DNA of 19,552 nt, taken from Candidatus Omnitrophota bacterium (GTDB lineage Bacteria > Hinthialibacterota > Hinthialibacteria > Hinthialibacterales > JAKPRU01). The position numbers were made by a program, and so were the translations under genes. Below the pieces are notes generated by a model. That model ran no database searches and was not told where the DNA came from. It saw only the letters and a program-made list of their open reading frames with translations. This document shows, piece after piece, positions 13,917 through 19,470 of the stretch (position 1 is the stretch's first letter; each line of letters opens with the position of its first letter). The stretch lies in NCBI GenBank assembly GCA_029557025.1, contig JAKPRU010000313.1:1-19552 (forward strand). Direction: 5' to 3'.

Positions 13917-14171
13917 ATGGGGATCAACGAAAATCTCGATCGAATATTTTCCATTCTTCTTTCCCTGGTGGCACTGGCGATTCTTGTGTCCACCGGTGCG
14001 GCTGTGGGATTTCTGGCCGGCGTGGCGGGGATGCTTGGCCTGTGGGGGATCGGTGTTTCCGCCGGGAAAGGCGTGGTTTTCGGCACGACTCTGTTTGCGG
14101 CATTGATCGCCACTCTGGTCGGTATCAAGTACTGTAAAACGATGTATTGGAGCAATATCAAGCAGCGGTAG
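13917..14171 (+). CDS. Small two-helix membrane protein, unknown function
   Basis: 84 codons, ATG with AAAGG 8 bases upstream, starting 17 bases after leuD. After a short polar start (MGINENLDR) it has one long or two closely spaced hydrophobic helices (about 11-47, containing FLAGVAGMLGLWGIGV) and another (about 53-70, VVFGTTLFAALIATLVGI), then a basic C-terminus (NIKQR). It is glycine-rich, as in helix-packing membrane proteins. I do not recognise a family. Its position at the end of the leuCD unit suggests cotranscription, not necessarily a shared function. Confidence 0.6.
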   Translation: MGINENLDRIFSILLSLVALAILVSTGAAVGFLAGVAGMLGLWGIGVSAGKGVVFGTTLFAALIATLVGIKYCKTMYWSNIKQR

Positions 14172-14367: not shown

Positions 14368-14416
14368 GACTGCATGATGATTGCGCCGCTCCGGGGTTGA
14401 GCATAAGGAGACAAGT

Positions 14417-15370
14417 ATGCGTAAAGGCTGGCGAGTGAAGTTTATTGCGGTCGCGCTGATGGGAGTTCTCCTGACAGGCTGCGCGACATCAAAGTCGCTC
14501 GTGATTCGAGACCCGACGCTCCGTGAGGCGGAATCGTATTTCAACCGAGGCGAGTACCGTCTGGCCCAACTCAAGTATTCCGCTTATCTGTATTCCCCTG
14601 AAGAACCGAAATCCCAGAAAGCGCTGGCGCTCTATCGCCTCGGATACTGCCAATACATCACCGGTTGTCACCGCGATGCAGAAAGAACCCTCAGTCAGTT
14701 CGTCACCGAATTCCCCAATGACAAACGCCGCCCGGAAGCCGAGGAATGGCTGAACAACATTCGCGGTTTCTTGCAGAAACAGGCCGAACGGAGCCGGCAG
14801 CAGGTTGAGAAAACGACACAGCAGATCTCCTCGCTGCGCGAACAGACTCAACAGAGTCCCAACGATGCAGAGAAACATTTCCAACTGGGCGAATCCTATT
14901 GGAAAATGGGCCTATTCGAGGATGCACTTAAGGAATACAACGTGGCCGTACAACTGAATCCTCAGTATCGCCAGAATTCCTCTGTGCAGAAACGTACCTA
15001 TATCGGAGACGATGGCACATTGAAGTTGCGGGAATCCCTTCTGACTCCCAAGGCGGTCGGCCCCATCGACATTCGGAGAATCCGCACTCGGCGGGTGGAA
15101 ACCTCCGATTTCTGGGGAACTACGCCGACCAAGTACTCTTACGTGGTGAGCGGTGAGGCCGTTCATGTTGGCGATCGGGTCTGCGCCAATGTGCAAATCG
15201 AGGTCACGATCTATGACTTCTTTGAAAAGGTAATGGATTCGCGGATTGTCAATATCGGGACAATGCAACCGGGACAGACCCGCCATTTTGTGGCGGAACT
15301 GAATCGGTTTGCCGGGGACCCGCTCGAAATCAATCGCTACGAAACCCAGGTGTTCTACGAGGAACAATGA
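14417..15370 (+). CDS. TPR outer-membrane-type lipoprotein with FxLYD-like domain (pilotin candidate)
   Basis: 317 codons; ATG with AAGGAG 8 bases upstream. It has a lipoprotein signal peptide: MRKGWRVKFIAVALMGVL then the lipobox LTGC (Cys22), so the mature protein is lipid-anchored. Residues 35-115 contain TPR-like helices (AESYFNRGEYRLAQLKYSAY, ALYRLGYCQYITGCHRDAER), 118-145 a Gln-rich coiled coil, and 152-185 a clean TPR (AEKHFQLGESYWKMGLFEDA, LKEYNVAVQLNP). The C-terminal part (about 240-315) is beta-rich with VQIEVTIYDFFEKVMDSR and GTMQPGQTRHFVAEL, resembling FxLYD domains. The stop overlaps the first secretin gene (ATGA). TPR lipoproteins (PilF/PilW, Tgl) help secretin assembly in type IV pilus systems, so a pilotin role is a reasonable inference, not shown. 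Confidence 0.85.
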   Translation: MRKGWRVKFIAVALMGVLLTGCATSKSLVIRDPTLREAESYFNRGEYRLAQLKYSAYLYSPEEPKSQKALALYRLGYCQYITGCHRDAERTLSQFVTEFPNDKRRPEAEEWLNNIRGFLQKQAERSRQQVEKTTQQISSLREQTQQSPNDAEKHFQLGESYWKMGLFEDALKEYNVAVQLNPQYRQNSSVQKRTYIGDDGTLKLRESLLTPKAVGPIDIRRIRTRRVETSDFWGTTPTKYSYVVSGEAVHVGDRVCANVQIEVTIYDFFEKVMDSRIVNIGTMQPGQTRHFVAELNRFAGDPLEINRYETQVFYEEQ

Positions 15371-16350
15371 AAAACAAACTCCTTCTTGCGGTATGTATTC
15401 TGGCGCTTTTCCTCCAATCAAGGGTCTGGTGCGCCCCGCCCGAGGCCGTGGCCGGATCGTCCTACAACCCGGCGGTGGTGGCCATCCGCGATCAGCTGGC
15501 TCAGACCTTTCCCATGATGGCCCTGGTGGAGGTCCGCATTATCGAGGTTCTGAGCGATTCCATAGGGGATTTGGGATTCTACTACGAAATGACCGGGAGA
15601 AACGGACGCCTGCGAAGCTCCGTGATTGACTTGAAGATCCTCGGATCGACCGATCCCGGCCTGAGGGTGGAGGGAATTCTGAGCCGGGATGCCGAGTCGC
15701 AAATCAATGCTGCGATTGAAATGCTCGCTACAAAACGAGAGGTAACCGTCTGGGCGGAACCGTCCGTCCTCATCCTGATGGGCCAGACCGCTGCCATCCA
15801 GTCCGGGGACGAAATCCCTTACATCAAGCGGGTTGTTGTGGGCTACACCGAGACCATTTCCTCCGACTTCAAACCCACCGGCATCTCGCTTAAGGTTACT
15901 CCGAACATCCTGGACATGGCGGGACAGCGATTGGTCCAAATGTTCCTCTCCGCAAGTTCCAGCAGTGTGACTCGCTATCGAGAAGAAGAGGGATACCAGC
16001 AACCCATCACGGACACGCGGGAATACGAAAGTACGATCGCTGTCGCTCCGGGGCAATATGCTGTCCTGGGAGGCATCATTCGCAGCACAGTTTCCGAATC
16101 ACGCCGGGGGGTCCCGACCCTGATGAACATCCCTGTTGTGGGCATGGCGACTCGCGGGAAATCGCAGCGCACAAACCTGGCCGAACTCTGGGTTCTTGTT
16201 CGGCCTCATATCGTGAACCTCGAAACATCGCCCGCAACCGACTTGAAGGGATTCCAACAGGAGTCTGCAAAAGAGAGACAGATGGCCTTGACCGGTTCCG
16301 TGAACCTCTTGCAGCCTCCCATACAGCCGGAGACGGAGAAAAAGAAATGA
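15367..16350 (+). CDS. Minimal secretin-domain protein 1
   Basis: 327 codons, start coupled to the lipoprotein stop (ATGA). It has a signal peptide (MKNKLLLAVCILALFLQSRV then WCAPP). Almost the entire mature protein is the C-terminal secretin domain of GspD/PilQ-type channels: MALVEVRIIEVLSDSIGDLG (51-70), INAAIEMLATKREVTVWAEP (113-132), the TAAIQSGDEIPYI lip region (141-153), FKPTGISLKVTPNI (168-181), TREYESTIAVAPGQYAVLGG (217-236) and the signature VPTLMNIPVVG (249-259) followed by AELWVLVRPHIVNL (272-285). Canonical secretins are about 600-800 residues with periplasmic N0/N1 domains; these are absent. It presumably forms, alone or with the next gene product, an outer-membrane ring. The short Lys-rich tail ends PETEKKK. 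Confidence 0.88.
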   Translation: MKNKLLLAVCILALFLQSRVWCAPPEAVAGSSYNPAVVAIRDQLAQTFPMMALVEVRIIEVLSDSIGDLGFYYEMTGRNGRLRSSVIDLKILGSTDPGLRVEGILSRDAESQINAAIEMLATKREVTVWAEPSVLILMGQTAAIQSGDEIPYIKRVVVGYTETISSDFKPTGISLKVTPNILDMAGQRLVQMFLSASSSSVTRYREEEGYQQPITDTREYESTIAVAPGQYAVLGGIIRSTVSESRRGVPTLMNIPVVGMATRGKSQRTNLAELWVLVRPHIVNLETSPATDLKGFQQESAKERQMALTGSVNLLQPPIQPETEKKK

Positions 16351-17366
16351 TCCGACAAACTTCCATCGAAACGGGTAGTCTGTCTGAGACTTCTTCAAAA
16401 CCGTCTTCCCCAAAATTGGGGGAGATACGGAGGGGGTTGAACCGATCCGCCGTTTTTGTACTGGCCCTCCTCCTCGGAGTGGCTTCTCCCATCCCCTGCC
16501 AGCGGGTAATTGAGATCGAGGCGGAGGTCTACGAATATCGCTTTGATGAAAACAAACAGATCGGACTGTTCCATGACTGGAAGAATTACTCGGGCGACCT
16601 GACTTCCCTCTCGATGAGAATGCCCGGCACAGAACGGATTTCGGACGATCCGCTGAGCGGAGTGGATCTCAACCTGGATTCCCTCAGCCTGATCTGGGGA
16701 ACGATTCAGACCCGTCTGATCGCGGCTGTGCGAGACGGTAAGGCGACATTGCTCAGCAGTCCCACGGTCATTGCCCTGGAGGGAACAACCGCACAGATAG
16801 TCAGCGGAGAGAGTTTTCCAGTCACCCAGTTTTCGGGTGTCGGCACCATTCAGTCTCTGACCGAACGTCCGTTGAATACCGGTGTCAAACTCTATGTGAC
16901 GCCCGCTGTCTTTCGCGACGAATACATCGTATTGAGTATCCAGGCGGAATCCAGTGAAATCCGCGACCAGCTGGTCGAATTTGTTACACCGGATAACCGT
17001 CGATACCAACTGCCCCAACCGTCAAAACGGTCCGCACAAACCGTCGTGATTCTTCGCTCCGGCCAGTCCTTCTATGTGGGCGGATTAATTCAGGAATCCG
17101 AACAGAGGCAGGTTCGATCCATTCCTATGTTGGGAAATATACCTCTTTTCGGGCGAGTCTTCCGGGGAACCAACAGGACTTCCGCTACCACGGAAACTGT
17201 TTTCCATATCCGACCCACTATTCTGCAACCGGGTGAGGGAAGCGGCCAGTATACTCGGCTGTTCGGCGAATCGCCCGAAGAAACGGCCGCAATGCCCAGT
17301 GTGTCCGAAATCTTCCCGGCCACGCCGGATGTCTCTTACCTGACCTCCTATCCGCACGTCCAGTAG
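16347..17366 (+). CDS. Minimal secretin-domain protein 2
   Basis: 339 codons, start overlapping the previous stop (ATGA) with GGAGA upstream. A second, diverged copy of the stand-alone secretin domain: VIEIEAEVYEYRFDENKQIG (54-73), LIAAVRDGKATLLSSPTVIA (124-143), TTAQIVSGESFPVTQF (147-162), LNTGVKLYVTPAVF (176-189), SAQTVVILRSGQSFYVGGLI (229-248) and the signature IPMLGNIPLFGRVF (259-272) with ETVFHIRPTIL (283-293). It again lacks N0/N1/N2 domains. The export signal (about 33-50, RSAVFVLALLLGVASPIP) is preceded by 32 unusual residues encoded in part by a dispersed repeat; a TTG at 16437, just after GGAGGGGG, would remove this extension, but the spacing is too short to prefer it. Possible partner or functional variant of secretin 1. 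Confidence 0.87.
   Translation: MIRQTSIETGSLSETSSKPSSPKLGEIRRGLNRSAVFVLALLLGVASPIPCQRVIEIEAEVYEYRFDENKQIGLFHDWKNYSGDLTSLSMRMPGTERISDDPLSGVDLNLDSLSLIWGTIQTRLIAAVRDGKATLLSSPTVIALEGTTAQIVSGESFPVTQFSGVGTIQSLTERPLNTGVKLYVTPAVFRDEYIVLSIQAESSEIRDQLVEFVTPDNRRYQLPQPSKRSAQTVVILRSGQSFYVGGLIQESEQRQVRSIPMLGNIPLFGRVFRGTNRTSATTETVFHIRPTILQPGEGSGQYTRLFGESPEETAAMPSVSEIFPATPDVSYLTSYPHVQ
16407..16440 (+). repeat. Dispersed palindromic repeat inside the second secretin gene
   Basis: TCCCCAA, AA, TTGGGGGA is followed by GATACGGAGGGGGTTGA. The composition and order (CCCCAA palindrome, then GGAGAT-x-GGAGGGGG) match a common dispersed repeat family; the 11-mer TTGGGGGAGAT also occurs on the minus strand at 2180-2170. 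Here it encodes SSPKLGEIRRGL in frame, upstream of the export signal. Confidence 0.5.
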
Positions 17367-17477
17367 CCCTTTCCTTCTCTTCTATCCCCGTTGTTTTTAT
17401 GATTTCGCACAGTGGCCGGCATCCTGGGGGGCATCGGTTCGCACAGTCCTGAATCGGAGGCCATTTGGACTACCGCC

Positions 17478-17981
17478 ATGCCAAAAAAGAAAAGCGCTCA
17501 ACCCGGTCAATTATCCTCCGATGCTGTCGCGGCGCTGAGGGCTGCTCGAAACCCCTCACTCGCCGGCAAACCGACGGATGTCCCATCCGTGCCTCTTGCA
17601 TGGGAGTTTCAGCCACACGGTCTCCCGGACATTGCTCCGCCGCCGGAAATCCCCTCTGAAGAAAACCCAATACCGCTCAGTGTTCAGGGACCCCAGGCGG
17701 GATTGATTCCTCGAATCGTTCGGGAACAATTGGTTGATGCAATGATTGCCTGGATTCAGGACTACTTCACCAAGCTGGAGAGGGCAAAAGCTCCCACCGT
17801 TATGCTTGTTCAAGTGGCGAAGACTTTCACGGAGATTGAGACACTCAAAAAGGATCTTCTGTGCCTGGAACGATCCATTGAGCTGGTGGGACGGGAGAAC
17901 GCCCAGGTCCTGATCGATCATGCCGGGGAGATCCGGTCGAAAATTATCGCCCTGTACGAACAGGTCGCATCCGGATCCTGA
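17478..17981 (+). CDS. Helical protein of unknown function downstream of the secretins
   Basis: 167 codons from the ATG at 17478; a GTG at 17412 would add 22 residues but has no SD, while the ATG has GGAGG only at an unusually long distance (about 17 bases), so the start is uncertain. The N-terminal half (1-75) is rich in Pro, Ala and Ser and probably disordered (MPKKKSAQPG, IAPPPEIPSEENPIP). The C-terminal half (76-165) is amphipathic helix (REQLVDAMIAWIQDYFTKLE, TFTEIETLKKDLLCLERSIE, LIDHAGEIRSKIIALYEQVA). There is no signal peptide or membrane helix, so it is probably cytoplasmic. It lies 111 bases after the second secretin on the same strand and is convergent with the next gene (6 bases). 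I do not recognise a family. Confidence 0.6.
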   Translation: MPKKKSAQPGQLSSDAVAALRAARNPSLAGKPTDVPSVPLAWEFQPHGLPDIAPPPEIPSEENPIPLSVQGPQAGLIPRIVREQLVDAMIAWIQDYFTKLERAKAPTVMLVQVAKTFTEIETLKKDLLCLERSIELVGRENAQVLIDHAGEIRSKIIALYEQVASGS

Positions 17982-18647: not shown

Positions 18648-18676
18648 ATCATAACTCATTCTACAGGATGTGAATA
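18648..18676 (-). promoter_or_regulatory. Candidate promoter of the cysteine-rich protein
   Basis: On the minus strand TATTCA and TATGAT (5 of 6 to TATAAT) are separated by 17 bases, giving a leader of about 55 bases before the ATG at 18584. The -10 is good; the -35 matches only 3 of 6. Confidence 0.4.
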
Positions 18677-18681
18677 CCTGT
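18663..18681. promoter_or_regulatory. Inverted repeat across the -35 (operator candidate)
   Basis: ACAGG-N9-CCTGT is a perfect 5-base inverted repeat with 19 bases total, the size of a dimeric regulator site. It encloses the proposed -35 (18671-18676) of the cysteine-rich gene, so a bound protein would block RNA polymerase. The arms are short and a chance occurrence is possible. Confidence 0.25.
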
Positions 18682-18863
18682 TCGGCAGGATTTTTTTGTT
18701 GTAGAAGGGGGGAGGTAGCACAGAACGGGGGGCATCATGATGGAACTAATCGCTTTTTTTGCAGCCTCTCTCCAGCGGGGCCGGTGATTGGGGTCAAGAA
18801 AGCGTCGTTCCCGCCCTTTTTTGCCGGGCCGGAACTCCCAGGCCACGGGTGGGAGGGGCCTCG

Positions 18864-19470
18864 GTGCCTGTCGATGGGGGCTCTTTCTTTGGAGCAGCAG
18901 CCGTTGTTGTGCTGCCGTGTATGGCGCACGATGCCCAATCTCCGCTCAATCCGCATCGCGGCTTCCCATTCGAGGGTCTCAATGAGTTTCAGGAATCCCC
19001 GGGTGGTTTCGTAAATATGCTTGCCCCGCTGGAACAACAACGCGGTTTTTCCTTGTGGATGCGTTGGAATGAGGGGAACATTTCTCATTCGGCGAGATAA
19101 TGGATCGATATATGTGGTGGTCCGGTAATTCGTATTCGACCGCCGCCGAAGTCGGTTTAGAAGAGTCCAATCTGCGGGGCCTGTTTGACATGTATGGAAA
19201 TATCCGGGAAATATGCCAGGATTGTGGGGAACCTTATTTTGCGGAGCCGCAAACAGACCCGGTTGGACCGCATGAGGGTCAACACTACGTAATACGTGGA
19301 GCGGCCCGAGGATACAATGCCGTCTTCGGCGCTCGGCTCTCCCGTCTTCTTATCTTACCGGGCCTGACTATACTGCCGGCTCCATCGGTGTTCGCGTTCT
19401 TCGCGGATACGAATGGAGAGAACCAAGTAATCGTCTGGACTATCTGAAACATAGGAGAGAATCAAGATGA
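18864..19470 (+). pseudogene. Degraded FGE-sulfatase (formylglycine-generating-enzyme-like) gene
   Basis: Pieces of an FGE-sulfatase domain occur in the right order but in three frames. Frame 1 (from 18864): VPVDGGSFFG, the family start normally ending in MG; then FPFEGLNEFQESPGGFVNML (about 18966-19025), comparable to HPVEGVSW...F..WL; then QQRGFSLWMRWNEG, comparable to RLPTEAEWE. Frame 2 (from 19076): HFSFGEIMDRYMWWSGNS, NLRGLFDMYGNIREICQD and DPVGPHEGQHYVIRGAARG, comparable to GLYDMHGNVWEWCQD and RVIRGGSW. Frame 3 (from about 19318): SSYLTGPDYTAGSIGVRVLR, ending at a TGA (19468-19470). Roughly 40 residues are missing after the start, conserved tryptophans are replaced and an in-frame stop (19070) precedes frame 2. 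Intact members are carrier-free sulfatase activators or related secreted proteins. The stop overlaps the next ATG (ATGA), as in an operon. Confidence 0.75.

What the first reader, a model, noticed from the sequence alone, without database searches (positions are those of the whole stretch)
14417..17366. Operon of a TPR lipoprotein and two stand-alone secretin domains
Seen: a lipoprotein (lipobox LTGC, TPR units, FxLYD-like end) followed by two proteins that each carry a complete secretin core ending in VPTLMNIPVVG and IPMLGNIPLFG, joined by ATGA overlaps. Known: canonical GspD, PilQ and RcpA-type secretins are about twice as long and need N0/N1 domains to contact the inner-membrane platform; TPR lipoproteins act as pilotins. 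Inference: this may be a compact outer-membrane channel, perhaps a hetero-oligomer of two paralogues, dependent on an unusual or shared inner-membrane partner. No ATPase, pseudopilin or platform gene is in the window.
Basis: partly seen in the sequence, partly recalled or inferred. Interest (0 to 1): 0.8.

Follow-up and report, generated by a model that had tools for sequence, protein, structure and literature searches.

The report
Paired minimal secretins with TPR lipoprotein
Three adjacent genes encode a lipoprotein and two outer-membrane pore proteins stripped down to the pore itself; the same trio is kept in two bacterial groups, which suggests an unstudied kind of gated outer-membrane channel.

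Summary
A lipoprotein (14417-15370; TPR repeats, FxLYD domain) is followed, through ATGA overlaps, by two secretin-pore proteins (15367-16350, 16347-17366). Each matches only PF00263 in Pfam, no N-domain family. They are not fragments: dN/dS is 0.08-0.20, and the trio occurs in 11 of 14 genomes of the phylum. The lipoprotein profile also hits 63 of 68 genomes of another, unnamed class. There, all 45 inspected loci with at least 2400 nt of contig downstream carry two or more short secretins behind it; 44 of 44 first and 44 of 44 second secretins match PF00263, none a secretin N-domain family. [quoted passage not shown] I read the trio as a gated outer-membrane channel of two N-module-less secretins with the lipoprotein as pilotin. 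Hetero-ring or two homo-rings, and the substrate, are unresolved. The host's T2SS secretin is split into N-domain protein and core, so an N-ring in trans stays possible, though the mostly long secretins listed for the second class speak against it (capped list).

The parts
14405..14410 (+). Shine-Dalgarno-like AAGGAG before gene A
   Evidence: read in the sequence
14417..15370 (+). gene A: TPR-FxLYD lipoprotein, 317 aa, lipobox LTGC
14513..14995 (+). helical TPR solenoid of A (model residues 33-193)
   Evidence: predicted model; TPR hits
15137..15343 (+). FxLYD domain of A
   Evidence: NF038353, 35.8 bits, cut-off 23
15367..15370 (+). ATGA overlap of A and B
15367..16350 (+). gene B: secretin pore protein without N-module, 327 aa, signal peptide
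15724..16215 (+). PF00263 match in B
16347..16350 (+). ATGA overlap of B and C
16347..17366 (+). gene C: secretin pore protein without N-module, 339 aa, signal peptide
16728..17225 (+). PF00263 match in C

Best explanation
The operon encodes an outer-membrane channel complex. B and C are exported by Sec and build secretin-type double-walled beta-barrel pores with a central gate but no periplasmic N-module. Lipoprotein A, anchored in the outer membrane, is their pilotin: its TPR groove would hold the C-terminal tails of B and/or C during assembly. Without N0 the pore cannot dock on an inner-membrane platform in the usual way, so substrate would come from the periplasm or through a partner held by the TPR/FxLYD lipoprotein. 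Shown: gene layout, domain content, conservation of the trio, purifying selection within the genus. Inferred: export, pore assembly, pilotin role, gating, platform independence. The strict pairing of two diverged secretins suggests one functional unit (mixed ring or obligate partner rings) rather than redundant copies.
For: PF00263 alone in B and C; profile and model match solved secretins over the pore domain; trio in 11 of 14 phylum genomes; lipoprotein in 63 of 68 genomes of a second class, with two or more short secretins behind it in 45 of 45 loci with enough contig; first/second secretin junction -4 in 29 and -1 in 10 of 44 pairs; no N-domain family in 44+44 proteins; dN/dS 0.083-0.196; FxLYD over cut-off in 9 of 9 further lipoproteins tested. 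Precedent: the TPR lipoprotein TadD binds the last four residues of RcpA and is essential for the ring (PMC10499894, abstract and passages).
Against: No experiment shows assembly, interaction or transport. The lipoprotein homologue of G011 (L040) shows no lipobox, and a loose lipobox pattern was found in only 46 of 61 second-class lipoproteins as called (start codons uncertain). T2SS/T4P-type platform genes (PF00482) exist in 68 of 68 second-class genomes, so independence of a platform cannot be argued from co-occurrence. The first secretin of the second class matches solved secretins only weakly and in part (best E 8.7e-8). Only B was modelled, at mean pLDDT 65.8. Three of 14 phylum genomes and 5 of 68 second-class genomes gave no lipoprotein match.
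Confidence: 0.55

Rival explanations
1. Two separate homo-oligomeric channels with different substrates share one lipoprotein pilotin.
For: B and C, and likewise the first and second secretin of the other class, are far apart in sequence (28% identity by the search of C against the own genome) and sit on long branches; known secretin rings are homomeric (recalled; PMC4311626 passage calls the complex homo-multimeric).
Against: Strict one-to-one adjacency, mostly with overlapping or touching genes in the second class, and near single copy.
Confidence: 0.27
2. Split secretin: the N-rings are supplied in trans, for instance by the separate N-domain protein of the T2SS, so B/C are exchangeable caps on a shared platform.
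For: The host's T2SS secretin is split into an N0 plus three Secretin_N protein and a core; ten phylum genomes have such ~400-aa cores (by open frame); split secretins exist in rhizobial T3SS (PMC3574062, PMC3973906, passages).
Against: No N-domain gene beside the trio in what was scanned.
Confidence: 0.12
3. Not a transport channel: the secretin fold serves as a structural ring or a plug-like outer-membrane organiser bound by the lipoprotein.
For: No substrate, energy source or platform gene is linked to the operon in the window ORFs scanned; conserved neighbours in the second class look like envelope genes (Lnt and MurJ are names given by eye).
Against: Glycines at the positions of the central-gate pivots are kept in B, C and Y by alignment.
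Confidence: 0.05
4. Fragments or pseudogenes of one ordinary secretin.
For: Only the short length.
Against: Own signal peptides and complete pore domains, short length kept in 11 phylum genomes and 44 complete second-class pairs, dN/dS 0.083-0.196.
Confidence: 0.01

Closest known systems
RcpA-TadD secretin-pilotin complex of the Tad system (PDB 8odn; PMC10499894, abstract and passages)
   Same: Short secretin plus TPR lipoprotein pilotin. Tad-type secretins fall on the same larger side of the tree as the N-less proteins (94/89).
   Different: RcpA has an N-domain (residues 33-130 with linker), is one gene, and belongs to a pilus machine; here two secretins, no N-domain, an added FxLYD domain, no pilus genes among the window ORFs scanned.
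Rhizobial split secretin RhcC1/RhcC2 with TPR lipoprotein Y4yS (PMC3574062, PMC3973906, PMC4311626; passages)
   Same: A pore part encoded apart from the N-domains; a TPR lipoprotein that affects the level of the pore protein.
   Different: RhcC1 supplies the N-terminal part and all sits in a T3SS; here no N-domain gene was found beside the trio and there are two pore genes.
T2SS secretins GspD/PulD/XcpD
   Different: They carry N0-N3, which B and C lack.
TPR lipoproteins BamD, YbgF, PilW/PilF, Tgl
   Different: C-terminal FxLYD domain and fixed linkage to two secretin genes.

Membership tests
Secretin superfamily | PF00263 pore domain | tested here: met
   B E 7e-34, C E 5.1e-35, both over the cut-off; 44 of 44 first and 44 of 44 second secretins of the other class
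Machine secretins of T2SS/T3SS/T4P/Tad | N0 and further N-domains (N-module), and N3 | tested here: not met
   no N-domain family in B or C at E<=1; 0 of 44 and 0 of 44 in the other class at E<=0.01; first pore strand of B starts at residue 51 in the model
Machine secretins of T2SS/T3SS/T4P/Tad | linked ATPase, platform or pilin genes | tested here: not met
   not in the 19 window ORFs scanned; such genes exist elsewhere in the phylum
Split secretin (RhcC1/RhcC2 type) | separate N-domain protein that completes the secretin | tested here: inconclusive
   none beside the trio in what was scanned; one in the T2SS operon of the same genome
TPR pilotin | lipobox and TPR repeats | tested here: met
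   LTGC, TPR families, solenoid in the model; the homologue in L040 lacks a lipobox
TPR pilotin | binds the cognate secretin and is needed for its assembly | not testable with these tools
   needs experiment or multimer modelling
Outer-membrane channel | oligomeric ring with central gate | not testable with these tools
   only inferred from the fold and from glycines at the gate positions

The most novel reading that the evidence does not exclude
A lineage-wide outer-membrane machine in which two diverged secretins without any N-module form one hetero-oligomeric gated pore on a TPR-FxLYD pilotin and work without a dedicated inner-membrane platform: secretins as stand-alone outer-membrane gates.
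Probability: 0.33. Interest if true: 0.87.

Novelty: new variant of a known kind. Interest (0 to 1): 0.72.

Why it matters
[quoted passage not shown] B and C lack both, and the trio is near single-copy and conserved in two bacterial groups. It therefore makes testable what the N-module is for, and whether one secretin ring can be built from two different chains. It also gives a marker operon for uncultured bacteria. Literature searches (secretin with missing N-domains, FxLYD, hetero-oligomeric or two secretins, Hinthialibacterota) brought up no paper on such a system, judged from the listings; the library holds open-licence papers only.

Tried and rejected
Fragment or frameshift hypothesis: rejected. 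Chance co-location: rejected. The Skp-like gene as part of the core: searched in the own phylum, 1 of 14 genomes, at E 9.5e-4 over part of the profile, so not part of the core trio. Platform independence by co-occurrence with PF00482: uninformative, 68 of 68. Orthology of the pairs (B with first, C with second secretin): neither grouping rejected (p-AU 0.352 and 0.516). N-domain ORFs of G008, G005 and G006 that are not in the PF00263 list were fetched and their neighbours called, but not followed further. Two regular-expression counts (gate glycines, first pore strand) missed most rows in some families and were discarded; the gene gaps are used. The 386-genome search with profile B scored at most five candidates per genome and lists only its best rows, so it is no census of N-less secretins. 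The VIA-align list for the lipoprotein tests only its helical part.

Full report
WHAT IS THERE. Gene A (14417-15370) is a 317-aa lipoprotein with lipobox LTGC, TPR repeats (TPR_2 E 9.4e-10) and a C-terminal FxLYD domain (35.8 bits, cut-off 23). Its model has a helical solenoid (33-193) and a beta domain (217-316) at mean pLDDT 77.5. Genes B (327 aa) and C (339 aa) each match PF00263 over practically its whole length (E 7e-34 and 5.1e-35) and no other Pfam family at E<=1. A/B and B/C overlap by ATGA.

CONSERVATION IN THE PHYLUM. The phylum of the window's genome has 14 held genomes. Four of five named relatives are titled Candidatus Omnitrophota in NCBI; I recall that GTDB calls such genomes Hinthialibacterota, which no call confirmed. 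Adjacent pairs of short secretins occur in 11 of 14 genomes (four families); none of the three genomes of the fifth family shows such a pair (two adjacent hits in G010 cover different parts of one domain). In all 11 the lipoprotein comes first. Gaps range from -14 to +155 nt, -4 in 10 of 22 junctions, with start codons partly chosen by me. Within the genus dN/dS is 0.083-0.196 over the three genes.

A SECOND CLASS. In 386 genomes the lipoprotein profile matched at E<=1e-15 in 14: the 11 above, G153, G290 and G368. G368's match covers only the TPR part (positions 14-206 of 322), and its called neighbours gave no hit to the B or C profile. G153 and G290 belong to one class of 68 held genomes; 63 of 68 have the lipoprotein (37 of 38 of the cleaner genomes), one match each except two in G443. 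I inspected 61 of these 63; the fragments of G394 and G410 were not fetched. Of 45 loci with at least 2400 nt of contig downstream, 44 have two and one has three short secretins on the same strand; 9 of 9 loci with 1200-2400 nt have one; of 7 with less, two have one and five none (criterion over 25 bits to profile B or C). Of the 44 complete pairs, all first and all second secretins match PF00263 and none matches a secretin N-domain family at E<=0.01. The junction of the two is -4 in 29 and -1 in 10 of 44. FxLYD passes its cut-off in 9 of 9 further lipoproteins tested, six from this class and three from the own phylum. A small secreted gene stands just upstream in 46 of 61 loci; it looks Skp/OmpH-like (two members scanned, PF03938 E 9.2e-5 and 1.6e-7, both below the Pfam cut-off). 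It is not found in the own phylum except one marginal hit.

ORIGIN. In a 66-row tree the first secretins (X), the second (Y) and the T2SS cores are firm groups (100/100, 100/100, 100/99); B (66/79) and C (43/15) are weak, B plus C 88/84. The 51 N-less rows, including a lone one in G142 (L091), lie on one side of a branch with support 73/36, so one origin is neither shown nor excluded. Tad-type secretins lie on the same larger side (94/89). Seven end branches are long.

THE HOST'S OWN T2SS. The same genome carries a secretin split in two genes: an N0 plus three Secretin_N protein (483 aa) and a 405-aa core; the same in L085 and L090 by Pfam, and by sequence in L041 and L086. Beside it in the relative G001 lie T2SS genes F, G, J, K and M by Pfam. 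Some cores keep one weak or partial Secretin_N match. Ten phylum genomes have such cores by open frame (397-437 aa). This keeps the in-trans rival alive.

MECHANISM. TPR lipoproteins serve as pilotins: TadD binds the last four residues of RcpA and is essential for secretin formation (PMC10499894, abstract and passages); loss of Y4yS lowers the level of the split core RhcC2 (PMC4311626, passages). A PulD variant without most of its N-terminal region still oligomerises, but it keeps N3 and, in the paper's words, N0 (PMC6946019, passages), so it is no test of a fully N-less pore. The tails of the second secretins hold residues invariant in 44 of 44 (A342, F345, W346 of the first sequence), and B's model ends in a helix (293-309); these are candidate pilotin-binding tails (inference). 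[quoted passage not shown] By position I equate them with G154/G179 in C, G194/G221 in Y and G147/G172 in B (G147 at 90% or more only in the wider alignment A7); the first secretins (X) keep only the second. The most likely reading is a gated outer-membrane pore assembled by the lipoprotein, without the usual inner-membrane docking ring.

NOVELTY. [quoted passage not shown] B and C show neither. Split secretins and TPR pilotins are known, so I call this a new variant of a known kind. Searches brought up no description of such a system.

Noticed in passing
L029:6294-8984 (-), L085:8772-11611 (-), L090:6391-8994 (+), L041, L086: The T2SS secretin of the window's phylum is split into an N-domain protein (N0 plus three Secretin_N) and a ~400-aa core in one operon.
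   Followed up: partly
L077:7554-11481 (-): In an unrelated genome (G219) an AMIN-TPR protein with weak N0-like matches is followed by two tandem secretin cores, each with one Secretin_N domain, in an operon that by eye holds GspE/GspF/PilM-like genes.
   Followed up: partly
L091:725-2125 (-): In G142 a lone 294-aa secretin with PF00263 alone stands behind a 134-aa OmpH/Skp-like gene; no TPR lipoprotein was called next to it.
   Followed up: partly
L144-L201 (second class): Upstream Skp-like gene in 46 of 61 loci, divergent ~867-aa gene in 33; downstream genes that look by eye like Lnt (21 loci) and MurJ (20 loci).
   Followed up: partly
L145 and L144: G443 holds two tandem copies of the module; G445 has three short secretins behind one lipoprotein.
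   Followed up: no
first secretin (X) of the second class, e.g. L078:7502-8656 (-): The stretch between the GG motif and the last strand is longer than in ordinary secretins, and the PF00263 match of the member shown ends at profile position 137 of 169.
   Followed up: no
window 17412-17981 and 13917-14171: Flanking genes without family hits (189 and 84 aa) that are also beside the trio in the two other genomes of the genus.
   Followed up: no
window 18670-19447: Overlapping short frames near the contig end; the last one matches part of the FGE-sulfatase domain, so the gene there may be broken or cut.
   Followed up: no
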